A stretch of DNA of 64,000 nucleotides from Verrucomicrobiaceae bacterium (GTDB lineage Bacteria > Verrucomicrobiota > Verrucomicrobiia > Verrucomicrobiales > Verrucomicrobiaceae). Made by a program: the position numbers and the translations under genes. Location: NCBI GenBank assembly GCA_027490195.1, contig JAIXYN010000005.1, forward strand, positions 1-64,000, read 5' to 3'. The notes beneath the pieces are model-generated. The model saw only the letters and a list, made by a program, of their open reading frames with translations, did not search any database and had not been told where the DNA came from. Below are positions 1,026-11,387 of this stretch, piece by piece. Positions within the stretch are counted from its first letter, which is position 1. Each line of letters opens with the position of its first letter.

Positions 1026-1763
1026 TCACAATGGTTGCCTAGTAAACGGGCGAATGTTCACCTGCGTTCTGTGAACAGAATCAGTCTTGTCTCCGTCAGT
1101 GGTCTTTCCCTGAAAATAGTGCTTTTGCCAGCCTCCTGAATGCGCCTCCTGAGCGTTGAAGATCTCGCGCTTCTCCGCCCACTCGGAATGTTGTCTGTTG
1201 ATGTCTGGATTGGCACTGATTGGTTCGAGCACTGGCTGGATGTCTTCAAGGGCGGCCAAGGAAATTGGCTGAATGAAGCAGATAGGCTCGAATTTTTTAA
1301 ATCTCACCGGAAAAAACGGGAGGTGAAGCTTCCAGTTCATGGTGAAGGTAAAGGGGCTCCAACTGCTTTCCACTATTCCTTCCAGTGGACTGCAGTTCGT
1401 CTTGGGACTGTTGGGCAGGCCTCGGACGCTCAGTTGTATATTCTCCGGAGTGCGGAAAAGGAAAGGGATGGTAAACGTCAGGATGCCAGAGCCAAAGTGG
1501 CTGGAGATGTTCTGAGAGTAAATACCTGGATCCTCATCGAATTTAAAAGACATGGCCTTATTCGCTCTGCCATATCCCTTCCACCATACGGTGAAGCCCA
1601 CCGGACAGGTAATCACCCATCCAGCTTGATTTGCTATGAGGAGTGGCAGGCAGCGATAGGCAAAGCGATTTGGAGTTTCGTCCATCCACGTCCTGTCCCG
1701 GGGGGCTGGCTGGATCTCCCAGCCGGGCCTGATGCTTTTCATTTGATATGCGGTCATTTTCAT
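1026..1763 (-). CDS. DUF6065 family protein
   Basis: This is a 245-residue cytoplasmic-looking protein without a signal peptide. The pattern PAPRDRTWMDETPNRFAYRC followed by LPLLIANQAGW, a segment IPFLFRTPENIQLSVRGLPN, then FTFTMNWKL and VRFKKFEPICFIQPI fits the DUF6065 family as I remember it; its biochemical role is unknown. The start codon is set by its 4-base ATGA overlap with the stop of the upstream HTTM gene (1760-1763), which indicates translational coupling and makes the two proteins likely partners. The C-terminal 60 residues (after LEDIQPV) are polar and probably helical. The family call is by pattern memory only. Confidence 0.65.
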   Translation of the reverse strand: MKMTAYQMKSIRPGWEIQPAPRDRTWMDETPNRFAYRCLPLLIANQAGWVITCPVGFTVWWKGYGRANKAMSFKFDEDPGIYSQNISSHFGSGILTFTIPFLFRTPENIQLSVRGLPNSPKTNCSPLEGIVESSWSPFTFTMNWKLHLPFFPVRFKKFEPICFIQPISLAALEDIQPVLEPISANPDINRQHSEWAEKREIFNAQEAHSGGWQKHYFQGKTTDGDKTDSVHRTQVNIRPFTRQPL

Positions 1764-3355
1764 AAGGAATGGAGATTGGCGTAATGGATGGTCCAGGGAA
1801 CGATCTGCTCGAAGACAGCTGTTCCCTGAGGAGTCACAGACTGAGGGGGATAGATTTGAATGCGCTGGATCTTGCGGGATGAATAGCGCGAATTAACGCG
1901 CATGAAATACAGCTTTACGTCCCTCAGGTGCTGATCAGGGTGACGTGTGTTCCATCGCTTTGTGATCCACTGCGCATAGTCCGCGATCGCGGGTTCATAG
2001 CGTGCATGATAAAGTGTCATATGGTATTCGCGCCAGAATCTAGATCGGTATGCATGACGCAGGTCCTGCATTGCCCCTGGTTGTACCAGCGAGTCGGCGT
2101 AGCCATTGATGGCTGCGCGCCGACCATCTGGCGTTTCTCCTTCCAGAAACAACCAGCCATCCTCCGTCTGGACATTGGGTGAAAACAGTCCCCAATGCTG
2201 GTCAATGCGCAACAGATAGCCTGGTGCCTGAAGGCAGGAAGGCACCGTGGAGGTGGCAGCTAATGGCAAGGTCGAAATATTCCACGCTAGGCAATATGAC
2301 ACCAGTGCTGCCACAACGAGGAGTTTCCATGCCGCTGGGAAACGGTGCGACGGCTGATCAGTAACTAGGCATCTATTGCGGCTGGCCAACCAAAACTGCC
2401 AAAACCCTGGGGGCAAAAAAGCGCACCACAGGACGATCATGACAGCCTGGAAAAATGCGAGTTTGAAAAGCAGCGCCAAGGAAAGATGAAACGCCATCAT
2501 GATAAGCACGAGGAGCGTTCGCGGAGTCTGCGCCTTTGACAGGCATGCGATCGCCAAGGGCCCGAATTCCTCGATCATCAAGCCTGCATGCGTGCCGAGA
2601 GAAAGCAGCCACGGAGGGCTGGAGCCATGGACGATGTCGCCAATCCAGGTGCGTAGCGACTGGATCGAGAGCGCGTGTTGGAGCGCGGTGGCATCGACCC
2701 TCCAGTCACTGCCTGACTTGTGCAAGGCGGTGAAGACATAAATCATCAGCATCTGCGCCACCAAGCCGGGGCTGAAAACCTGCCGGACCTCATGTGGCGA
2801 GAAGAAGACCGCACGCTGGCTGAGCTGAGGACTCCATGGTAGCAGAACCAGCCAAAAGAGAAGCAGACGCAGCACATGGTCACCACCATAGAGGATAAAC
2901 GGGTTCCGGGTATGGAGAGATATGACAAGAAGCCAGCAGACGCAGAGACAGGGCTTTGGGCGGCAGCCTAGAGCTAGGCCTGCCGCGGCCACAAACAACC
3001 CCACAAGCAACATCTGCTGGTACCACCCGGCATCGCACCAGAAATGCGGCAGCCAGGAAATGTGCTCAAAAAAGTTGAGGTCAGTGCCAAGTCGCACCCC
3101 CGCAACGGGGATGTCCGCTCGTGCAGACAGCGTTAGCACATCAACTGACCAGCCCCCCATCCAGCGTGCTGCACAGTCCCACATGATCAGACACCCAACC
3201 AAAGACTGGCAGAGAAAAAGGCTGCGCGAATCGAGAAAACACGCGTGACGAACAGACAAAAAAAGCGACTGCAAACGCAGCTGTTTTTTAAGTGGTATTT
3301 CAGGAATGACTATGGAGGCATGCAAGACTTTAATCTTAGTAATACATGAAACCAA
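1760..3355 (-). CDS. HTTM domain integral membrane protein (VKGC-like)
   Basis: This is a protein of up to 531 residues with several hydrophobic segments in its first 330 residues and a soluble C-terminal part. The segment SLHTRNPFILYGGDHVLRLL followed by LLFWLVLLPWS is the signature of the HTTM (horizontally transferred transmembrane) domain related to vitamin K-dependent gamma-carboxylase; the sequence before it (ARADIPVAGVRLGTDLNFF) is the usual loop. HTTM proteins are thought to modify or carboxylate partner proteins, but bacterial substrates are mostly unknown. The first in-frame start is a TTG at 3353-3355; the next ATG lies inside the first membrane helix, and other TTG codons lie between, so the true N-terminus is uncertain. 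It overlaps the downstream DUF6065 gene by ATGA. Confidence 0.8.
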   Translation of the reverse strand: MVSCITKIKVLHASIVIPEIPLKKQLRLQSLFLSVRHACFLDSRSLFLCQSLVGCLIMWDCAARWMGGWSVDVLTLSARADIPVAGVRLGTDLNFFEHISWLPHFWCDAGWYQQMLLVGLFVAAAGLALGCRPKPCLCVCWLLVISLHTRNPFILYGGDHVLRLLLFWLVLLPWSPQLSQRAVFFSPHEVRQVFSPGLVAQMLMIYVFTALHKSGSDWRVDATALQHALSIQSLRTWIGDIVHGSSPPWLLSLGTHAGLMIEEFGPLAIACLSKAQTPRTLLVLIMMAFHLSLALLFKLAFFQAVMIVLWCAFLPPGFWQFWLASRNRCLVTDQPSHRFPAAWKLLVVAALVSYCLAWNISTLPLAATSTVPSCLQAPGYLLRIDQHWGLFSPNVQTEDGWLFLEGETPDGRRAAINGYADSLVQPGAMQDLRHAYRSRFWREYHMTLYHARYEPAIADYAQWITKRWNTRHPDQHLRDVKLYFMRVNSRYSSRKIQRIQIYPPQSVTPQGTAVFEQIVPWTIHYANLHSL

Positions 3356-3466: not shown

Positions 3467-3619
3467 ATGAAATATCTAAAGTTGATACTTATGGGGTCTG
3501 TGGCCCTTGTCGTCCACTTCTGCTTCAGCGCAGCTTGTATTCTTTTTGCTAGCAATACTTACGGGGCGGAGGCTGCCTGCTCACCACCGCCACCGCCGCC
3601 ACCGCCGCCCGGTGAATAA
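3467..3619 (+). CDS. exported polyproline micropeptide (50 aa)
   Basis: An ATG at 3467 opens a 50-codon frame ending with TAA at 3617-3619. The peptide has a basic start (MKYLKL), a hydrophobic core (VALVVHFCFSAACILFA), an AxA-like region (TYGAEAA) and then only about a dozen residues: a Cys-Ser followed by nine prolines and Gly-Glu. It thus looks like a signal peptide followed by a tiny proline-only mature part. It lies 67 bases before the ATG of the Rhs-like gene and shares the AT-rich character of that gene run, so it is probably the first gene of the operon. A weak promoter-like TTGACG occurs at 3396. I know of no named family; it could also be a non-expressed frame. Confidence 0.5.
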   Translation: MKYLKLILMGSVALVVHFCFSAACILFASNTYGAEAACSPPPPPPPPPGE

Positions 3620-3685
3620 TAACTACTGCGACACGCGTCGTTCTTGGCTCAACAAATAGTCGATTCCAACCTGCTATTTCGCCTA

Positions 3686-5131
3686 ATGAAGACCTGTGGC
3701 TCGATATTTTCATTCATCTGCTATGCCCTACTGTCCTCTAGTGGGTGGCTAAGGGCGGCTGATGGGCTGACGTATCCTTTGAACAGGCTCAAATGGGCTA
3801 ATGCTATGGGAACAGGCTCCATCTGGCTTGGGATGAACGAGCTGGGTATAAAGGGATGGATGAAGGGGGGTGACTTGCCATTCAGCATTCATTTCTCGAC
3901 TTCGCCACAATTTCCTACTAGCGACAGCCTGGGGCATGGATGGTATCTTCCTCTTTTTGAAAGTTCCGTGGTTGAACTCGGGGAGGAGGTTGTTCGTTGG
4001 AATAGTCCTGGAGGCGAGTACTGCTACTTGAATCGAGAAGGAGACGGCTCAAGCCAGTATTCTTCCGCCGATGGTAACTGGCATGGGGAACTCGATGTCC
4101 AGCATCGCCAGTTTAAAATCAAGCATTTGGATGGCACTTCCTTTGTCTATAGAAATGGCCTTATTGAGAAGCTCCTAATTAACGGATCGGCGTATAATTG
4201 GGAGCGTAATACAGGCAGCGGAAAGACTGGAAAAATCACTCAGGACTCAAAGACACTTCTGGAGTGCTTTTATAATGAGCGGGGCAGTATCAAGCGCCTT
4301 TTGTTTCCACAAAGTGGCCAGTCGCTACAGTTTGCATACCAAGACCGTCCTGTCTTTGTGACCAATGCGGGTGCTCGTATTGTCGGAGCCGTGAAACCAA
4401 GCCTTGCCAAAATATCTGCCACTAATGGGCGGGAATGGTCTTTTAATATTGCCGACGAGGTAAGTGCTGCTGAAGATGCAGTGTCGAAGATTGAAATTCA
4501 TACTCCTAACAAGTCGCCGCAGTGGTTTTCGTGGCGATCCGACGGCGGCCTTGTGGAAGACAATAAACATTTCTACACGACAACGAGTTTCGATGGAGGA
4601 GATAAAAAAATTTCCACAAAATCTAAAGATTCGGGGAAGGGTGAGAGTTACTTTTACAACTCAAAGACAATGATCGAGGAGCGACTCCTGCCAGGAGGAA
4701 ACACGGCCAAGATCTGGTTCGTGGGAACACCTGGAAAATCTTTCTTCACTGTACGCCAGACGCAGGAGATTGATCCTGAAGGCAGGGTGCTCTCCACAAA
4801 TCGGTTTATGCGTGATTCATTAGGACGGCTTAACAGGGTCGTGATGGGTGACATCCGAGATGTTTCTGTTTCCCATTTGGAAGCTGGCGAAAAGGTGCCT
4901 GCATTAGAGGAGATTCAGGCAGGCTTGGAAAAGTCATGGAAAGGAAGAGGTAAGCCAGTTGTGGCAGTATCAAGTGAAGGGCTGGTGGTGGGCGTCAAGG
5001 AGGATGAGCAGTCGGTGCGAATCATCCAATCGACGGAAAAAGGATCTGTAATGACTCTTCGGCAGGAAAATATGAAGGATACAAAATATCTTTTCGATAA
5101 GGCGGGTAACCTAATCGACAGCGTCGAGTAA
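3686..5131 (+). CDS. exported YD-repeat/Rhs-like protein
   Basis: The protein is 481 residues from the ATG at 3686; a TTG at 3644 would add 14 residues but would bury the signal peptide, which starts MKTCGSIFSFICYALLSS. The mature part begins with segments such as DSLGHGWYLPLFESSVVELG and SFVYRNGLIEKL, followed by repeated short Tyr/Gly strands (LLECFYNERGSIKRL, TQEIDPEGRVLSTNRF, MRDSLGRLNRV, TKYLFDKAGNLIDS). These are degenerate YD-type repeats as in the N-terminal shell of Rhs/wall-associated proteins, but there are far fewer than in a true Rhs toxin, and no toxin tail follows. It heads a run of secreted genes (next start 27 bases on). Function unknown. Confidence 0.65.
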   Translation: MKTCGSIFSFICYALLSSSGWLRAADGLTYPLNRLKWANAMGTGSIWLGMNELGIKGWMKGGDLPFSIHFSTSPQFPTSDSLGHGWYLPLFESSVVELGEEVVRWNSPGGEYCYLNREGDGSSQYSSADGNWHGELDVQHRQFKIKHLDGTSFVYRNGLIEKLLINGSAYNWERNTGSGKTGKITQDSKTLLECFYNERGSIKRLLFPQSGQSLQFAYQDRPVFVTNAGARIVGAVKPSLAKISATNGREWSFNIADEVSAAEDAVSKIEIHTPNKSPQWFSWRSDGGLVEDNKHFYTTTSFDGGDKKISTKSKDSGKGESYFYNSKTMIEERLLPGGNTAKIWFVGTPGKSFFTVRQTQEIDPEGRVLSTNRFMRDSLGRLNRVVMGDIRDVSVSHLEAGEKVPALEEIQAGLEKSWKGRGKPVVAVSSEGLVVGVKEDEQSVRIIQSTEKGSVMTLRQENMKDTKYLFDKAGNLIDSVE

Positions 5132-5158
5132 AACAAATAACAACATTAATTAATACTT

Positions 5159-5647
5159 ATGAAAAACAAAATCATCATTGCAGCGGGTGCAGCTCTTGTA
5201 ACCCTGACTCTCTCATTTGCCGCGTTCGGAGCGCATACTTCTCCTACGAGCGGAGGAGAATGTGGTCCGTCGAATAATAATGCCATGCCGACATGCAGCC
5301 AGTCCACCGACACTATTGACTGCCCTGAGGGCTACACTCCGAGGAATGGTTACGAGTCGCACGAGTGTAATTCGGGTGAAGGCGTCAAATTGTATGGTAA
5401 AACAGACGCGCAAAATATTAAAGACTGCACGAGCACCGACACTAAGCAATGCTGTAAAGAAGATACCTCGAAAGGCACATGTCTGACAAAGCACTATGTG
5501 ACGTGCAGAACGGAAACACGCCAAAAAACATGCAGCAAGAATAATGCAGATCCACACACGGTTAATGTTAAGGTGTGCTTGACGAGTGACCCTCAAGAGG
5601 AAAACTCTGGCGACCTGGACTGGGCTGTCTCGCAGCCCTGTTCTTAA
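5159..5647 (+). CDS. small exported cysteine-rich protein
   Basis: This 162-residue protein has a clear Sec signal peptide (MKNKIIIAAGAALVTLTL then AAFGA). The mature part carries 12 cysteines in about 135 residues, including a CC pair (TKQCCKED), and is rich in Thr, Asn and Asp. Such a composition suggests a disulfide-bonded fold outside the cytoplasm. I do not recognise the family. It is in the middle of the 3.4-8.0 kb run of exported genes, 27 bases after the Rhs-like gene and 34 bases before the next, so it is probably co-transcribed. It could be a structural, adhesive or substrate protein of whatever that gene set does. Confidence 0.7.
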   Translation: MKNKIIIAAGAALVTLTLSFAAFGAHTSPTSGGECGPSNNNAMPTCSQSTDTIDCPEGYTPRNGYESHECNSGEGVKLYGKTDAQNIKDCTSTDTKQCCKEDTSKGTCLTKHYVTCRTETRQKTCSKNNADPHTVNVKVCLTSDPQEENSGDLDWAVSQPCS

Positions 5648-5681
5648 TAGTCGTAGGCGATAAAAACAAACCTATGCTGCC

Positions 5682-6632
5682 ATGACTACACGAAGAATGC
5701 TCGGCATGCACTTGTGCATTGGACTGTGGGCGATAAGCCGCTCAGCAGGCCTATGTGAGGAGCCAACGCCTTCTCAAGCGCTGCTGGCTGCACTTAACAC
5801 CTTCATCTCCAACGATAAAATTCTTTCGATAGCGGCCGACACAAAGACGTTTGTGGACGGCAAATTGGACACCACTGCCAAAGTAAAAGTATCGGTGGCG
5901 TTGAATGGGGCTGAAAATTTGGTGGCAGTTGATTACGAGCCGTTTACCAAATTCAGTCCGGAATTTACTGTGCAGTCCACACTTCGCACAGTATTCAATG
6001 GTCGCTACTGGAGTCAGGCAACGTATGACGTTGGGAATCCCGGCAAGGACAACTTTGCTCCTGTAAATGTGGTGAGGATATCATCCAAGCCAAATCCACG
6101 CTTTATGAATTACAAGCGCAGATCGGGGCTTGAGTTATGTCTTCCGTTTTTCAGGTTTCAAGATCAGGGTGGTTGGCTGACTCTCCGTGATGTACTGTTG
6201 GATCGCACGGGTTACACTTTTTCAGTGAAAGAAGAAAAACGTGACAATGCTAGCCTGCTTAAAGTCACTTTTGGTGGCGACCGGGAGTGGGTGCTAGTTG
6301 ATCCTCAAAAAAACTTTGTTGTGCTGGAGCACGTGCTTAATTCAGCGGAATGGCGTGATGAAACAATCGCAAGCCAAATTACCCAGACTCGCTCCGGTCT
6401 ATGGTTTGCGACTGAATACACCTACCGCTATATCGATCATGGACAGGAAAAAATGCGAACGGAGACTAAAATATCCGATGTTTCTTATCAGGATAAATTG
6501 GTGTTTGAGCAGACGTTAAAACCAAAGTTCCCTCCAGGATGGCGGGTCATTGATGAGCGAATCAACAAAGAGTTCGTCATTGGGCAAGATCCGAGCACGA
6601 TCATCAACAATATTAGCTCCGCTGTCAAGTAG
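5682..6632 (+). CDS. exported protein of unknown function
   Basis: This is a 316-residue protein with an N-terminal signal (MTTRRMLGMHLCIGLWAISR, then SAGLCEE). The mature protein is beta-rich with alternating patterns (VKVSVALNGAENLVAVDYE, LLKVTFGGDREWVLVDPQKN), reminiscent of the lipoprotein-carrier (LolA/LolB-like) fold or of similar outer-membrane-associated sheets, but no motif secures this. It is the fourth gene of the AT-rich secreted set and is followed after 15 bases by the DUF1573 protein. No homologue is named here. Confidence 0.6.
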   Translation: MTTRRMLGMHLCIGLWAISRSAGLCEEPTPSQALLAALNTFISNDKILSIAADTKTFVDGKLDTTAKVKVSVALNGAENLVAVDYEPFTKFSPEFTVQSTLRTVFNGRYWSQATYDVGNPGKDNFAPVNVVRISSKPNPRFMNYKRRSGLELCLPFFRFQDQGGWLTLRDVLLDRTGYTFSVKEEKRDNASLLKVTFGGDREWVLVDPQKNFVVLEHVLNSAEWRDETIASQITQTRSGLWFATEYTYRYIDHGQEKMRTETKISDVSYQDKLVFEQTLKPKFPPGWRVIDERINKEFVIGQDPSTIINNISSAVK

Positions 6633-6647
6633 ATCAGCTTTATTCTA

Positions 6648-7961
6648 ATGAGAGTCACACAACTCGTCGCCACATTACTCATCATCTTCCTTTCCACAGG
6701 TCTTCATAGCAAGGACTCCTTGGACGATTTGGAGTTTCAACGCGAAGACGTTTGTTACGAAGCCATTCAGATTGCACTAGCTCTGTCTGGTCGGCCTTTG
6801 CTTCGGGAAAAGGACGAACGTATCCCGCCCGCGAGCATGATAGGAAACTTCGGGTACTCCGACGTTGTCGCTGTTCTAAAAAACTCGGGCATTCGGTTCG
6901 AATACAGAACAAGTTGTCCTGTAGAGCAGACGCTGAAGAAGCTAAATTCTGAATACACCGGGGTCATCGTGGAGGCCTCGAAGCCGAATAAGGTTGCTGA
7001 AATTGCAGCGACCACACAAGCGCAGACAGATTCTAAGTTTTTCATTTTAAACTTCAGTCAGGGTGAGCCTCGATTACACGAATATCCGAAGCTAAACCAA
7101 AGAATCGACCTGGCACGGGCCATTGAATTTCTTCGATTGGCAAGCGTTAGATCTCTCATCTTCTTTTCACCTGAAGGACTGCTTGGCAATGCTGATGCCG
7201 CCACTGCTGTCTCTGGAGCTGTGCAAGTGGTAGGATTGCACGGAGACAAGTCGAAAATACCCGTTGGGAATCAAAATGCATCTGGTGTAACTAAGGGGGA
7301 GTCTATTAATTTTCCAAAGGAGATTAGTCTTGGCAGAATAGCGCGGACGGCCAAGGTTGTGGTCGCCACATTTTCGCTGAAAAATACCGGAACCAGTCCC
7401 TTGAGCATCACTCGCGTACAAGGGACATGCTCATGCTTTTTGCGATCCGAATGTCCCAAGACAATATCTCCGGGCAGTGACGCCACGATTTCCCTCTATT
7501 TTTCTCCTGAGTTGTTCAAGTTTTCAGACCGATTTAAGACCGCTGTTGCTTTCGAGTTGGATGACAAGCAGCTGAAACGGACATCAGTTGGCGTCTCGGG
7601 TGACTTCACTGATGAGGGCTATTGCTTCCTCTCTTTTGAGACAATTGATCTTGGCGCTATTACACGAGCGCAACTCCAGAAACAGGCAGTGAGATGCGCC
7701 CTCTTTACACTCAAGCAGGCCCAAGGATTTCAGATAGTGAAAACTTTTTCGGAGCCTAGAGGTGCTCAAATCACGGAAATATCCGACGACAATGCACAGC
7801 AGTCAGCATTAGATCCATCACTTTCAAGTATCAGATCTTTCAAAGTAACTCCACCAGAGGGCCTGCCAACGGGCACCCAGCATCTGACTCTTGTCATAGA
7901 GACCAACGACCCCATTTATCAGCAGGCATCCGCCAGCTTAAAATTCACTTTGATTGATTAG
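6648..7961 (+). CDS. exported DUF1573-domain protein with C39-peptidase-like N-terminal region
   Basis: The 437-residue protein has a signal peptide (MRVTQLVATLLIIFLSTGLH). Residues 225-320 form a DUF1573 (Ig/MSP-like) domain: LGRIARTAKVVVATFSLKNT, GTSPLSITRVQGTCSCF and ISPGSDATISLYF match its hallmark of an initial strand, the N(T)G turn and the Cys pair. A second weaker repeat follows (FETIDLGAIT to the C-terminus). The N-terminal region (residues 30-170) has a Cys followed by a helix (VCYEAIQIALALSGRPL) and a Leu-rich segment, reminiscent of papain-like C39 peptidase domains, but the usual catalytic His motif is not evident, so activity is doubtful. In Planctomycetota and Verrucomicrobiota, DUF1573 proteins are common exported proteins of unknown role. 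It ends the operon. Confidence 0.65.
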   Translation: MRVTQLVATLLIIFLSTGLHSKDSLDDLEFQREDVCYEAIQIALALSGRPLLREKDERIPPASMIGNFGYSDVVAVLKNSGIRFEYRTSCPVEQTLKKLNSEYTGVIVEASKPNKVAEIAATTQAQTDSKFFILNFSQGEPRLHEYPKLNQRIDLARAIEFLRLASVRSLIFFSPEGLLGNADAATAVSGAVQVVGLHGDKSKIPVGNQNASGVTKGESINFPKEISLGRIARTAKVVVATFSLKNTGTSPLSITRVQGTCSCFLRSECPKTISPGSDATISLYFSPELFKFSDRFKTAVAFELDDKQLKRTSVGVSGDFTDEGYCFLSFETIDLGAITRAQLQKQAVRCALFTLKQAQGFQIVKTFSEPRGAQITEISDDNAQQSALDPSLSSIRSFKVTPPEGLPTGTQHLTLVIETNDPIYQQASASLKFTLID

Positions 7962-10979: not shown

Positions 10980-11387
10980 CTACCCCGCATTTCTCACACC
11001 CCATCCAAAAAGGCGTCTTTTTGAGAGGGTTTGAAGCGAGATCATCCTTATGATTGAGTCTGTGACCTGCTCCTGCGCTTCGATCCACGTTATGAGCTCA
11101 TCGCGGCAGAAGCCCGAGTCCCCGCGCACGATGATCGCGACGTGTTTGCCAAAGCGTTCATGAATGGCCGCGACGATCTTTTGCAGGGCTGCCAGCGTGC
11201 CGCCGCTGCCAGCGCGGTCCGCCGTGCGCAACTGCGCCCACAGCGGGATGTCGCCACAGAAGCAATAGAGCGGCAGGTAGCAGTAGCCGCCGTAATAACC
11301 ATGGAAGAAGCGGCCCTCCTGCTGGCCGTGCAGGGCATCATCGGTGGCGTCAAAAATCCAGCACGATGACCTTGCTACAGCGTGCAA
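10980..11387 (-). pseudogene. IS1380-family transposase remnant
   Basis: The reverse strand encodes DATDDALHGQQEGRFFHGYY, then YCYLPLYCFCGD and VAIIVRGDSGFCRDELITW, the DDE-transposase core typical of IS1380 elements (first Asp in FDATDD, second in RGDSGF). The copy is broken: an extra T in the T-run complementary to 11352-11356 shifts the frame from KVIVLDF into the DATDD segment, the N-terminal 100 or more residues are missing, and the sequence after the second Asp (EAQEQVTDSIIR) departs from the family. No terminal repeats were found. It marks past insertion activity between glnII and thrS. Confidence 0.8.

What the first reader, a model, noticed from the sequence alone, without database searches (positions are those of the whole stretch)
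3467..7961. Run of five exported proteins beginning with a polyproline micropeptide
An AT-richer block holds a 50-aa signal-peptide-like product ending in nine prolines, a YD/Rhs-like protein without toxin tail, a 12-cysteine protein, an unknown beta-rich protein and a DUF1573 protein with a C39-like N-terminus. All five are exported and tightly spaced, and only two have a nameable domain. The tiny mature part of the first product (Cys-Ser-Pro9-Gly-Glu) is highly unusual. A surface structure, an exported-peptide maturation pathway or an adhesive matrix are all conceivable.
Basis: partly seen in the sequence, partly recalled or inferred. Interest (0 to 1): 0.6.

Follow-up and report, generated by a model that had tools for sequence, protein, structure and literature searches.

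The report
Micropeptide genes paired with YD-shell proteins
The odd 50-residue product ending in nine prolines is one of at least 44 tiny exported peptides that Verrucomicrobiota encode just upstream of a small YD (Rhs-like) shell protein, in a recurring gene cassette that appears undescribed and probably assembles something at the cell surface.

Summary
Confirmed and extended. All five ORFs exist at the stated places. The polyproline micropeptide is not a curiosity. Across class- and phylum-wide searches, 44 short ORFs of the same build were found, nearly all 4-180 nt upstream of relatives of the YD gene: signal sequence, usually a Cys, a low-complexity tail of Pro, Ser, Asp, Thr or Asn-Gly, and mostly an acidic last residue. 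They precede 32 of 45 strong YD genes against 17 of 446 other genes. Poly-Ser tails mix TCN and AGY codons, so selection acts on the peptide. Tail type follows the YD tree (3 changes; shuffles at least 11). The five-gene order micropeptide, YD, Cys-rich, ~200-340-aa, DUF1573 recurs in about ten loci. A membrane set (ABC, Wzy_C ligase, alpha/beta hydrolases, often MauE) lies in the same operons or elsewhere in the genome and co-occurs with the cassette. A divergent HTTM-like gene belongs to the window's cassette. Most likely the micropeptide is a disordered, thiol-bearing partner of the YD protein, as Bd0108 is of Bd0109 in Bdellovibrio, within an exported Cys-rich envelope assembly. Binding, expression and function are untested. 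The C39 claim is not supported. I found no earlier description of the cassette.

The parts
3467..3619 (+). Micropeptide gene, 50 aa: signal sequence, then Cys-Ser-Pro9-Gly-Glu; member of a class of at least 44 ORFs
3578..3616 (+). Tail of the micropeptide: Cys (TGC 3578-3580), Ser, nine Pro codons (3584-3610, mixed CCA/CCG/CCC), Gly, Glu
3686..5131 (+). Short YD-shell-like exported protein (481 aa from ATG 3686; ORF opens at TTG 3644); no toxin domain found
5159..5647 (+). Exported cysteine-rich protein, 162 aa, 12 Cys, all after the signal sequence
5682..6632 (+). Exported 316-aa protein of an unnamed family; one homologue (35%) in the genus; proteins of 200-340 aa hold the same position in other cassettes
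6648..7961 (+). Exported DUF1573 protein, 437 aa, with an unassigned N-terminal extension
1760..3355 (-). Divergent HTTM-like membrane protein, 531 aa; homologues stand divergent to the micropeptide/YD genes in L026 (twice), L029 and L031

Best explanation
What it is: a conserved cassette in which a very small exported peptide gene stands directly upstream of a gene for a short, toxin-less YD-shell protein, followed by an exported Cys-rich protein, an exported protein of about 200-340 aa and a DUF1573 protein. How it most likely works: (1) micropeptide and partners carry Sec-type signals and are exported (inferred from sequence); (2) cleavage leaves a short, disordered, hydrophilic peptide with usually one to four cysteines and an acidic C-terminus (inferred); (3) this peptide is the dedicated small partner of the YD protein and binds or modulates it, as Bd0108 does for Bd0109 in Bdellovibrio (inferred by analogy and from co-inheritance); (4) its cysteine and the Cys-rich protein are oxidised or cross-linked in the envelope, in many relatives with help from the MauE and rhodanese-like genes of the operon (inferred); (5) the ABC / Wzy_C / alpha-beta-hydrolase set, on another contig of this genome, builds or attaches further material, so that the product is an envelope or surface complex (inferred; the weakest step). 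Shown here: the genes, the class of micropeptides, selection on the peptide sequence, co-inheritance with the YD protein, and co-occurrence with the machinery. Confidence in the cassette and micropeptide class as real is about 0.93; in the partner-of-YD mechanism about 0.5; in a surface structure as the output about 0.35.
For: Micropeptides precede 32/45 strong YD genes against 17/446 other genes of the same loci (Fisher p 1.7e-27). 44 curated cases: last residue D/E in 31/44 against 12% of 650 background ORFs; low-entropy tails; poly-Ser tails mix TCN and AGY codons, so the repeat is kept at protein level. pN/pS 0.3-0.7 for alignable pairs. Tail type needs 3 changes on the YD tree, shuffles at least 11. 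Five-gene order in about ten loci. A second poly-Pro micropeptide-YD pair lies in the same genome (L031). Wzy_C homologue in exactly 4 of 56 close relatives, those with micropeptide- or rSAM-type cassettes; in 385 genomes of the class, 22 of 26 YD-positive and 12 of 359 others. Precedent: Bd0108 (exported, disordered, two Cys) lies upstream of, is co-transcribed with and binds the YD protein Bd0109 (PMC3818213, PMC4267844).
Against: No expression, secretion or binding data. Co-inheritance of linked genes does not prove binding. No pilus genes were seen in the window cassette, unlike the Bd0108/Bd0109 locus. Homology of this YD family to Bd0109 was not tested. Four micropeptides (L107, L112-L114) have no cysteine in the mature part, and several YD genes (L027, L028, L030, L032, L033, L067, L085, L096 and others) have no micropeptide, so neither cysteine nor micropeptide is indispensable to every YD relative.
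Confidence: 0.52

Rival explanations
1. The micropeptide is a translation-arrest or attenuation leader (in the manner of SecM, MifM or MgtL): the signal sequence and stall-prone tail make translation of the downstream YD gene depend on export or on the translation state.
For: Position directly upstream of YD with a signal sequence; tails such as Pro9, DPDPDPDP, Asp11 and PPPEPPPEQE are of stall- or destabilisation-prone kinds (stalling itself from general knowledge).
Against: Ser9, SSD repeats and NGN repeats are not of that kind; the cysteine and C-terminal residues are conserved by lineage; the gap to the YD start varies from 4 to 180 nt and one case overlaps it.
Confidence: 0.15
2. The micropeptide, and perhaps the Cys-rich protein, is the precursor of a modified secreted peptide (RiPP or pheromone), and the neighbouring enzymes mature and export it.
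For: L032 and L085 carry a YD gene with a radical SAM gene (Pfam radical SAM and SPASM for L032; for L085 by N-terminal resemblance only) and a Cys-rich precursor-like protein in place of the micropeptide; ABC transporters, PMT_2 and ICMT-like enzymes occur in some operons.
Against: No maturase next to the window cassette; no C39 peptidase; Sec-type signals; low-complexity cores carry little specificity; no receptor gene seen.
Confidence: 0.17
3. The cassette makes a disulphide-linked or glycosylated surface matrix or adhesive in which the micropeptide is a structural spacer that need not bind the YD protein specifically.
For: Cys-rich partner, MauE and rhodanese-like genes, Wzy_C ligase and PMT_2, hydrophilic Ser/Thr/Pro/Asp tails.
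Against: Lineage-specific C-terminal motifs (DSMP, GHNE, FE types) suggest specific recognition; poly-Asp and Asn-Gly tails are not obvious glycan acceptors.
Confidence: 0.13
4. Chance ORF or pseudogene fragment created by a CCG/CCA repeat.
For: The window tail is a simple-repeat-like DNA run and no SD-like site is seen before the ATG.
Against: Enrichment 32/45 against 17/446, acidic C-termini, mixed-codon tails, co-inheritance.
Confidence: 0.03

Closest known systems
Bd0108/Bd0109 of the Bdellovibrio hit locus (PMC3818213, PMC4267844)
   Same: Small exported protein gene directly upstream of a gene for a periplasmic YD/RHS protein of similar size (550 aa); the small protein is intrinsically disordered and has two cysteines.
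   Different: Bd0108 is 101 aa with a complex, non-repetitive sequence; its locus contains type IVb (Tad) pilus genes; no Cys-rich, DUF1573, Wzy_C or hydrolase partners are described there. Homology of Bd0109 to this YD family was not tested.
Rhs/YD polymorphic toxins and teneurin YD shells
   Same: Profile similarity of the YD family to teneurin-like and Rhs core structures.
   Different: Mostly 400-660 aa, Sec-type signal, no C-terminal toxin domain found, micropeptide upstream, no immunity gene recognised.
SecM/MifM/MgtL-type regulatory leader peptides
   Same: Short ORF upstream of a gene, signal sequence, polyproline or acidic tail in some members.
   Different: Many tails are not stall-prone; selection is on peptide identity, including cysteine and C-terminus.
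Radical SAM/SPASM RiPP systems
   Same: Sister clusters L032 and L085 carry a radical SAM gene beside a Cys-rich precursor-like protein.
   Different: The window cassette has no maturase, and its peptides carry Sec-type signals.

Membership tests
Bd0108/Bd0109-type pair | small exported protein gene directly upstream of a YD/RHS gene on the same strand | tested here: met
Bd0108/Bd0109-type pair | small protein disordered, with cysteines | tested here: inconclusive
   low-complexity tails and usually Cys by sequence; four members lack Cys; disorder not measured
Bd0108/Bd0109-type pair | direct physical interaction of the two products | not testable with these tools
   needs binding assays
Bd0108/Bd0109-type pair | sequence homology of the YD protein to Bd0109 | not tested
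   Bd0109 sequence not at hand
Bd0108/Bd0109-type pair | Tad/type IV pilus genes in the same locus | tested here: inconclusive
   none recognised in the ORFs around the window cassette, whose left side is cut by the contig end; other relatives not screened systematically
YD/Rhs superfamily | profile similarity to YD-shell/Rhs core | tested here: met
   E 7e-6 (teneurin-like) and 3e-5 (Rhs)
Rhs polymorphic toxin | C-terminal toxin domain after the shell | tested here: not met
   495-aa protein, no Pfam domain; relatives likewise
DUF1573 (PF07610) | Pfam gathering score | tested here: met
   44.9 against 26.1 bits
Peptidase C39 | C39 domain in the DUF1573 protein's N-terminus | tested here: not met
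   no Pfam hit at E<=10, no PDB hit at E<=10
HTTM (PF05090) | Pfam gathering score for the divergent gene | tested here: not met
   16.6 against 27.7 bits, E 0.006: HTTM-like only; its homologue in L026 scores 21.3
RiPP precursor | adjacent maturation enzyme | tested here: not met
   none beside the window cassette; present in the variant L032 and probably L085
Lipoprotein | lipobox before the mature cysteine | tested here: not met
   window residues before the Cys are E-A-A; others QSS, GGY, EDP; the Cys lies well past the hydrophobic core
SecM-like arrest leader | a stall-prone tail in every member | tested here: not met
   Ser, SSD and NGN tails in many members; stalling itself was not measured

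The most novel reading that the evidence does not exclude
A widespread, undescribed envelope system of Verrucomicrobiota: dedicated Cys-plus-low-complexity micropeptides, each matched to its own YD-shell protein, are exported and built into a Cys-rich surface assembly by a shared ABC / Wzy_C-ligase / alpha-beta-hydrolase / MauE-rhodanese machinery that can serve several cassettes in trans within one genome.
Probability: 0.4. Interest if true: 0.88.

Novelty: new variant of a known kind. Interest (0 to 1): 0.76.

Why it matters
It turns one strange polyproline ORF into a family of at least 44 exported micropeptides, found here as bare ORFs, with a fixed partner gene, and gives the single known example of such a pair (Bd0108/Bd0109, which controls pili and the predatory lifestyle in Bdellovibrio) many candidate analogues in another phylum. 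It offers a handle on what short toxin-less YD shells do, and on how very small, low-complexity genes can be recognised: by position, codon mixing and C-terminal conservation rather than by sequence identity.

Tried and rejected
A +1 frameshift reading of the tail (...PVNNNYCDTRRSWLNK, frame of 3507-3659) was considered and dropped: relatives end in the same frame with the same GE/GGE ending (L031, L091). Lipoprotein reading dropped (no lipobox). C39 reading dropped. Genome contigs and viral contigs gave no relatives; a genome search with the DUF1573 protein found only weak, DUF1573-only matches. Pfam and NCBIfam gave nothing for the YD-like, Cys-rich and 316-aa proteins, and Pfam nothing convincing for the ~300-aa proteins of relatives. 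Literature searches found no description of the cassette.

Full report
OBSERVATION. The micropeptide runs from ATG 3467 to a double stop at 3617-3622 and ends Cys-Ser-Pro9-Gly-Glu; its nine proline codons mix CCA, CCG and CCC. The YD gene probably starts at ATG 3686 rather than TTG 3644. Gaps are 66, 27, 34 and 15 nt, all on the + strand. The block is 46-49% G+C against 57-60% to its right. DUF1573 is confirmed; the C39 N-terminus is not. The divergent gene at 1760-3355 is HTTM-like, below Pfam's cut-off.

PLACEMENT. The window is the first 64 kb of a contig (G000:C12) of a 7-Mb genome. Of seven relatives of the genus that were fetched, six share the neighbouring block up to about 10,856 (protein phosphatase-like gene, kinase-like gene, glutamine synthetase-like gene) and one, cut by its contig end, shares the phosphatase part; in all seven the nucleotide similarity stops at about 8,229, the edge of the cassette, and where sequence continues other genes follow. 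The cassette is therefore most likely an accessory segment; its left edge is not visible because the contig ends.

THE MICROPEPTIDE IS A CLASS. A profile of the YD family was searched through genomes of the phylum, class and order and the neighbourhoods fetched. In most cassettes a short ORF precedes the YD gene. Examples of endings: window ACSPPPPPPPPPGE; L031, in the same genome, YCTPPPPPPTTDGE; L091 DPCNPPPPPPGGE; L084 SCSSSSSSSSSGE; L094 GDCDDDDDNDE; L087 DPCPGSSDSSDSS(n)NLE; L065 CDCDSMPIGVRE; L112 (NGN repeats)KPKGPGHNE. With one automatic rule (ATG, hydrophobic N-terminus, later Cys), 32 of 45 strong YD genes have such an ORF against 17 of 446 other genes in the same loci (Fisher p 1.7e-27). 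Some of the 17 are themselves MauE-like or Cys-rich genes of the cassette. Eight more members were added by hand after relaxing the rule, giving 44.

SELECTION ON THE PEPTIDE. 31 of 44 end in D or E against 12% of 650 background ORFs (binomial p 4e-19), and the last 14 residues have lower entropy than background (p 1e-11). Poly-Ser tails use both TCN and AGY codons, e.g. L084 TCG TCA TCG AGC AGT TCT AGC AGC AGC; these codon blocks cannot interconvert by one silent change, so the repeat is maintained as protein. Alignable pairs give pN/pS 0.3-0.7; these pairs were chosen by amino-acid identity, which biases the ratio low.

CO-INHERITANCE. I sorted tails into four types (I Cys-low-complexity; II D[SNC]M[PSG]; III GH[NA]E; IV Cys-acidic-[FY]E) after seeing them. 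On the YD tree the 37 typed members need 3 changes, the minimum for four states; 2000 shuffles gave 11-17. Type II, III and IV each fall in one supported branch. Several deep branches are weak and some rows are long.

CASSETTE. Reading downstream of YD, the order Cys-rich (11-15 Cys), 200-340 aa, DUF1573 recurs in L073 (both), L083, L084, L086, L092, L093 and L099, and in L026 with a DUF1573-like lipoprotein; L073 (second) and L093 have one extra gene before DUF1573. L033 has the four genes without a micropeptide. Other operon members across 53 loci: alpha/beta hydrolases in 28, Wzy_C in 23, DUF1573 in 21, ABC (ATPase fused to an ABC2 membrane part) in 14, MauE in 8, HTTM-like in 7, PMT_2 in 5, ICMT-like in 4. 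The family names come from Pfam scans of one or a few representatives; the hydrolase family has only weak Pfam support. A protein next to MauE that I read as rhodanese was assigned by eye only.

MACHINERY IN TRANS. The window cassette lacks the ABC/Wzy_C/hydrolase genes, but the genome has them on contig C17. Among 56 relatives a close Wzy_C homologue occurs in exactly four genomes, G000, G064, G075 and G076, which are those with micropeptide-type or radical-SAM-type cassettes; genomes with only the other YD type (G001, G020, G029) lack it. In 385 genomes of the class, 22 of 26 YD-positive and 12 of 359 others have it (Fisher p 2e-23). Linkage and kinship inflate this figure.

MECHANISM. The nearest studied case is Bdellovibrio Bd0108/Bd0109: a 101-aa exported, intrinsically disordered protein with two cysteines, encoded directly upstream of and co-transcribed with a 550-aa periplasmic YD/RHS protein; the two bind (Kd 45 uM, about 3:1), and losing Bd0108 almost abolishes pili (PMC3818213, PMC4267844). 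A Bacteriovorax Bd0109 homologue also has two small signal-bearing neighbours unrelated to Bd0108. I therefore propose that these micropeptides are dedicated disordered partners of their YD shells, acting in the envelope together with a disulphide-rich protein. Shown: genes, conservation, co-inheritance, co-occurrence. Inferred: export, cleavage, binding, disulphides, surface product. The main rivals are a modified-peptide precursor and an arrest leader; mixed-codon Ser tails and Asn-Gly tails speak against the leader.

VARIANT. L032 (G075) and L085 (G490) have a YD gene followed by a radical SAM/SPASM protein (Pfam for L032; for L085 judged by its similar N-terminus) and a very Cys-rich protein (348 and 390 aa), then hydrolases and Wzy_C, without a micropeptide. 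This suggests that the Cys-rich component can be a modified peptide in some lineages.

LIMITS. No structure prediction (closed), no SignalP, no expression data, no named organisms for the genome set, and literature limited to open-licence papers.

Noticed in passing
L032:9258-17537 (G075) and L085:609-9669 (G490): Variant cassette: YD gene, radical SAM/SPASM protein (Pfam-confirmed in L032 only), Cys-rich precursor-like protein (348 aa; 390 aa with 34 Cys and a Tat-like SRRAF motif), hydrolases, Wzy_C; no micropeptide. A candidate RiPP-like system.
   Followed up: partly
L107, L112, L113, L114 upstream of the YD genes: Cys-free micropeptides with NGN or Asp repeats and a shared C-terminus KPKGxGH[NA]E; all four YD proteins form one supported branch.
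   Followed up: partly
L147:13-11327 (G000:C17): ABC / Wzy_C / several large alpha-beta hydrolases in the window's own genome, unlinked to its three YD cassettes.
   Followed up: yes
L034:2679-4257 (G000:C86): Third YD locus of the same genome, preceded by an 86-aa Cys-rich small ORF instead of a single-Cys one.
   Followed up: no
L025:8915-10346 (G022): A 35% homologue of the window's 316-aa protein in a genome without this YD cassette, next to a 140-aa exported protein.
   Followed up: no
L084, L086, L087, L092, L101: Ser-rich micropeptides lie near PMT_2 (protein O-mannosyltransferase family) and, in four of the five, ICMT-like genes; possible O-glycosylation of the tails.
   Followed up: no
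window 10980-11387 (-): ORF resembling a transposase fragment (by eye) between the glutamine synthetase-like gene and the threonyl-tRNA synthetase-like gene.
   Followed up: no
L027, L028, L030 (G020, G029, G001): Second type of YD gene in the same genus, without micropeptide and without the Wzy_C set, a few kb from pseudopilin/secretion-like genes.
   Followed up: no
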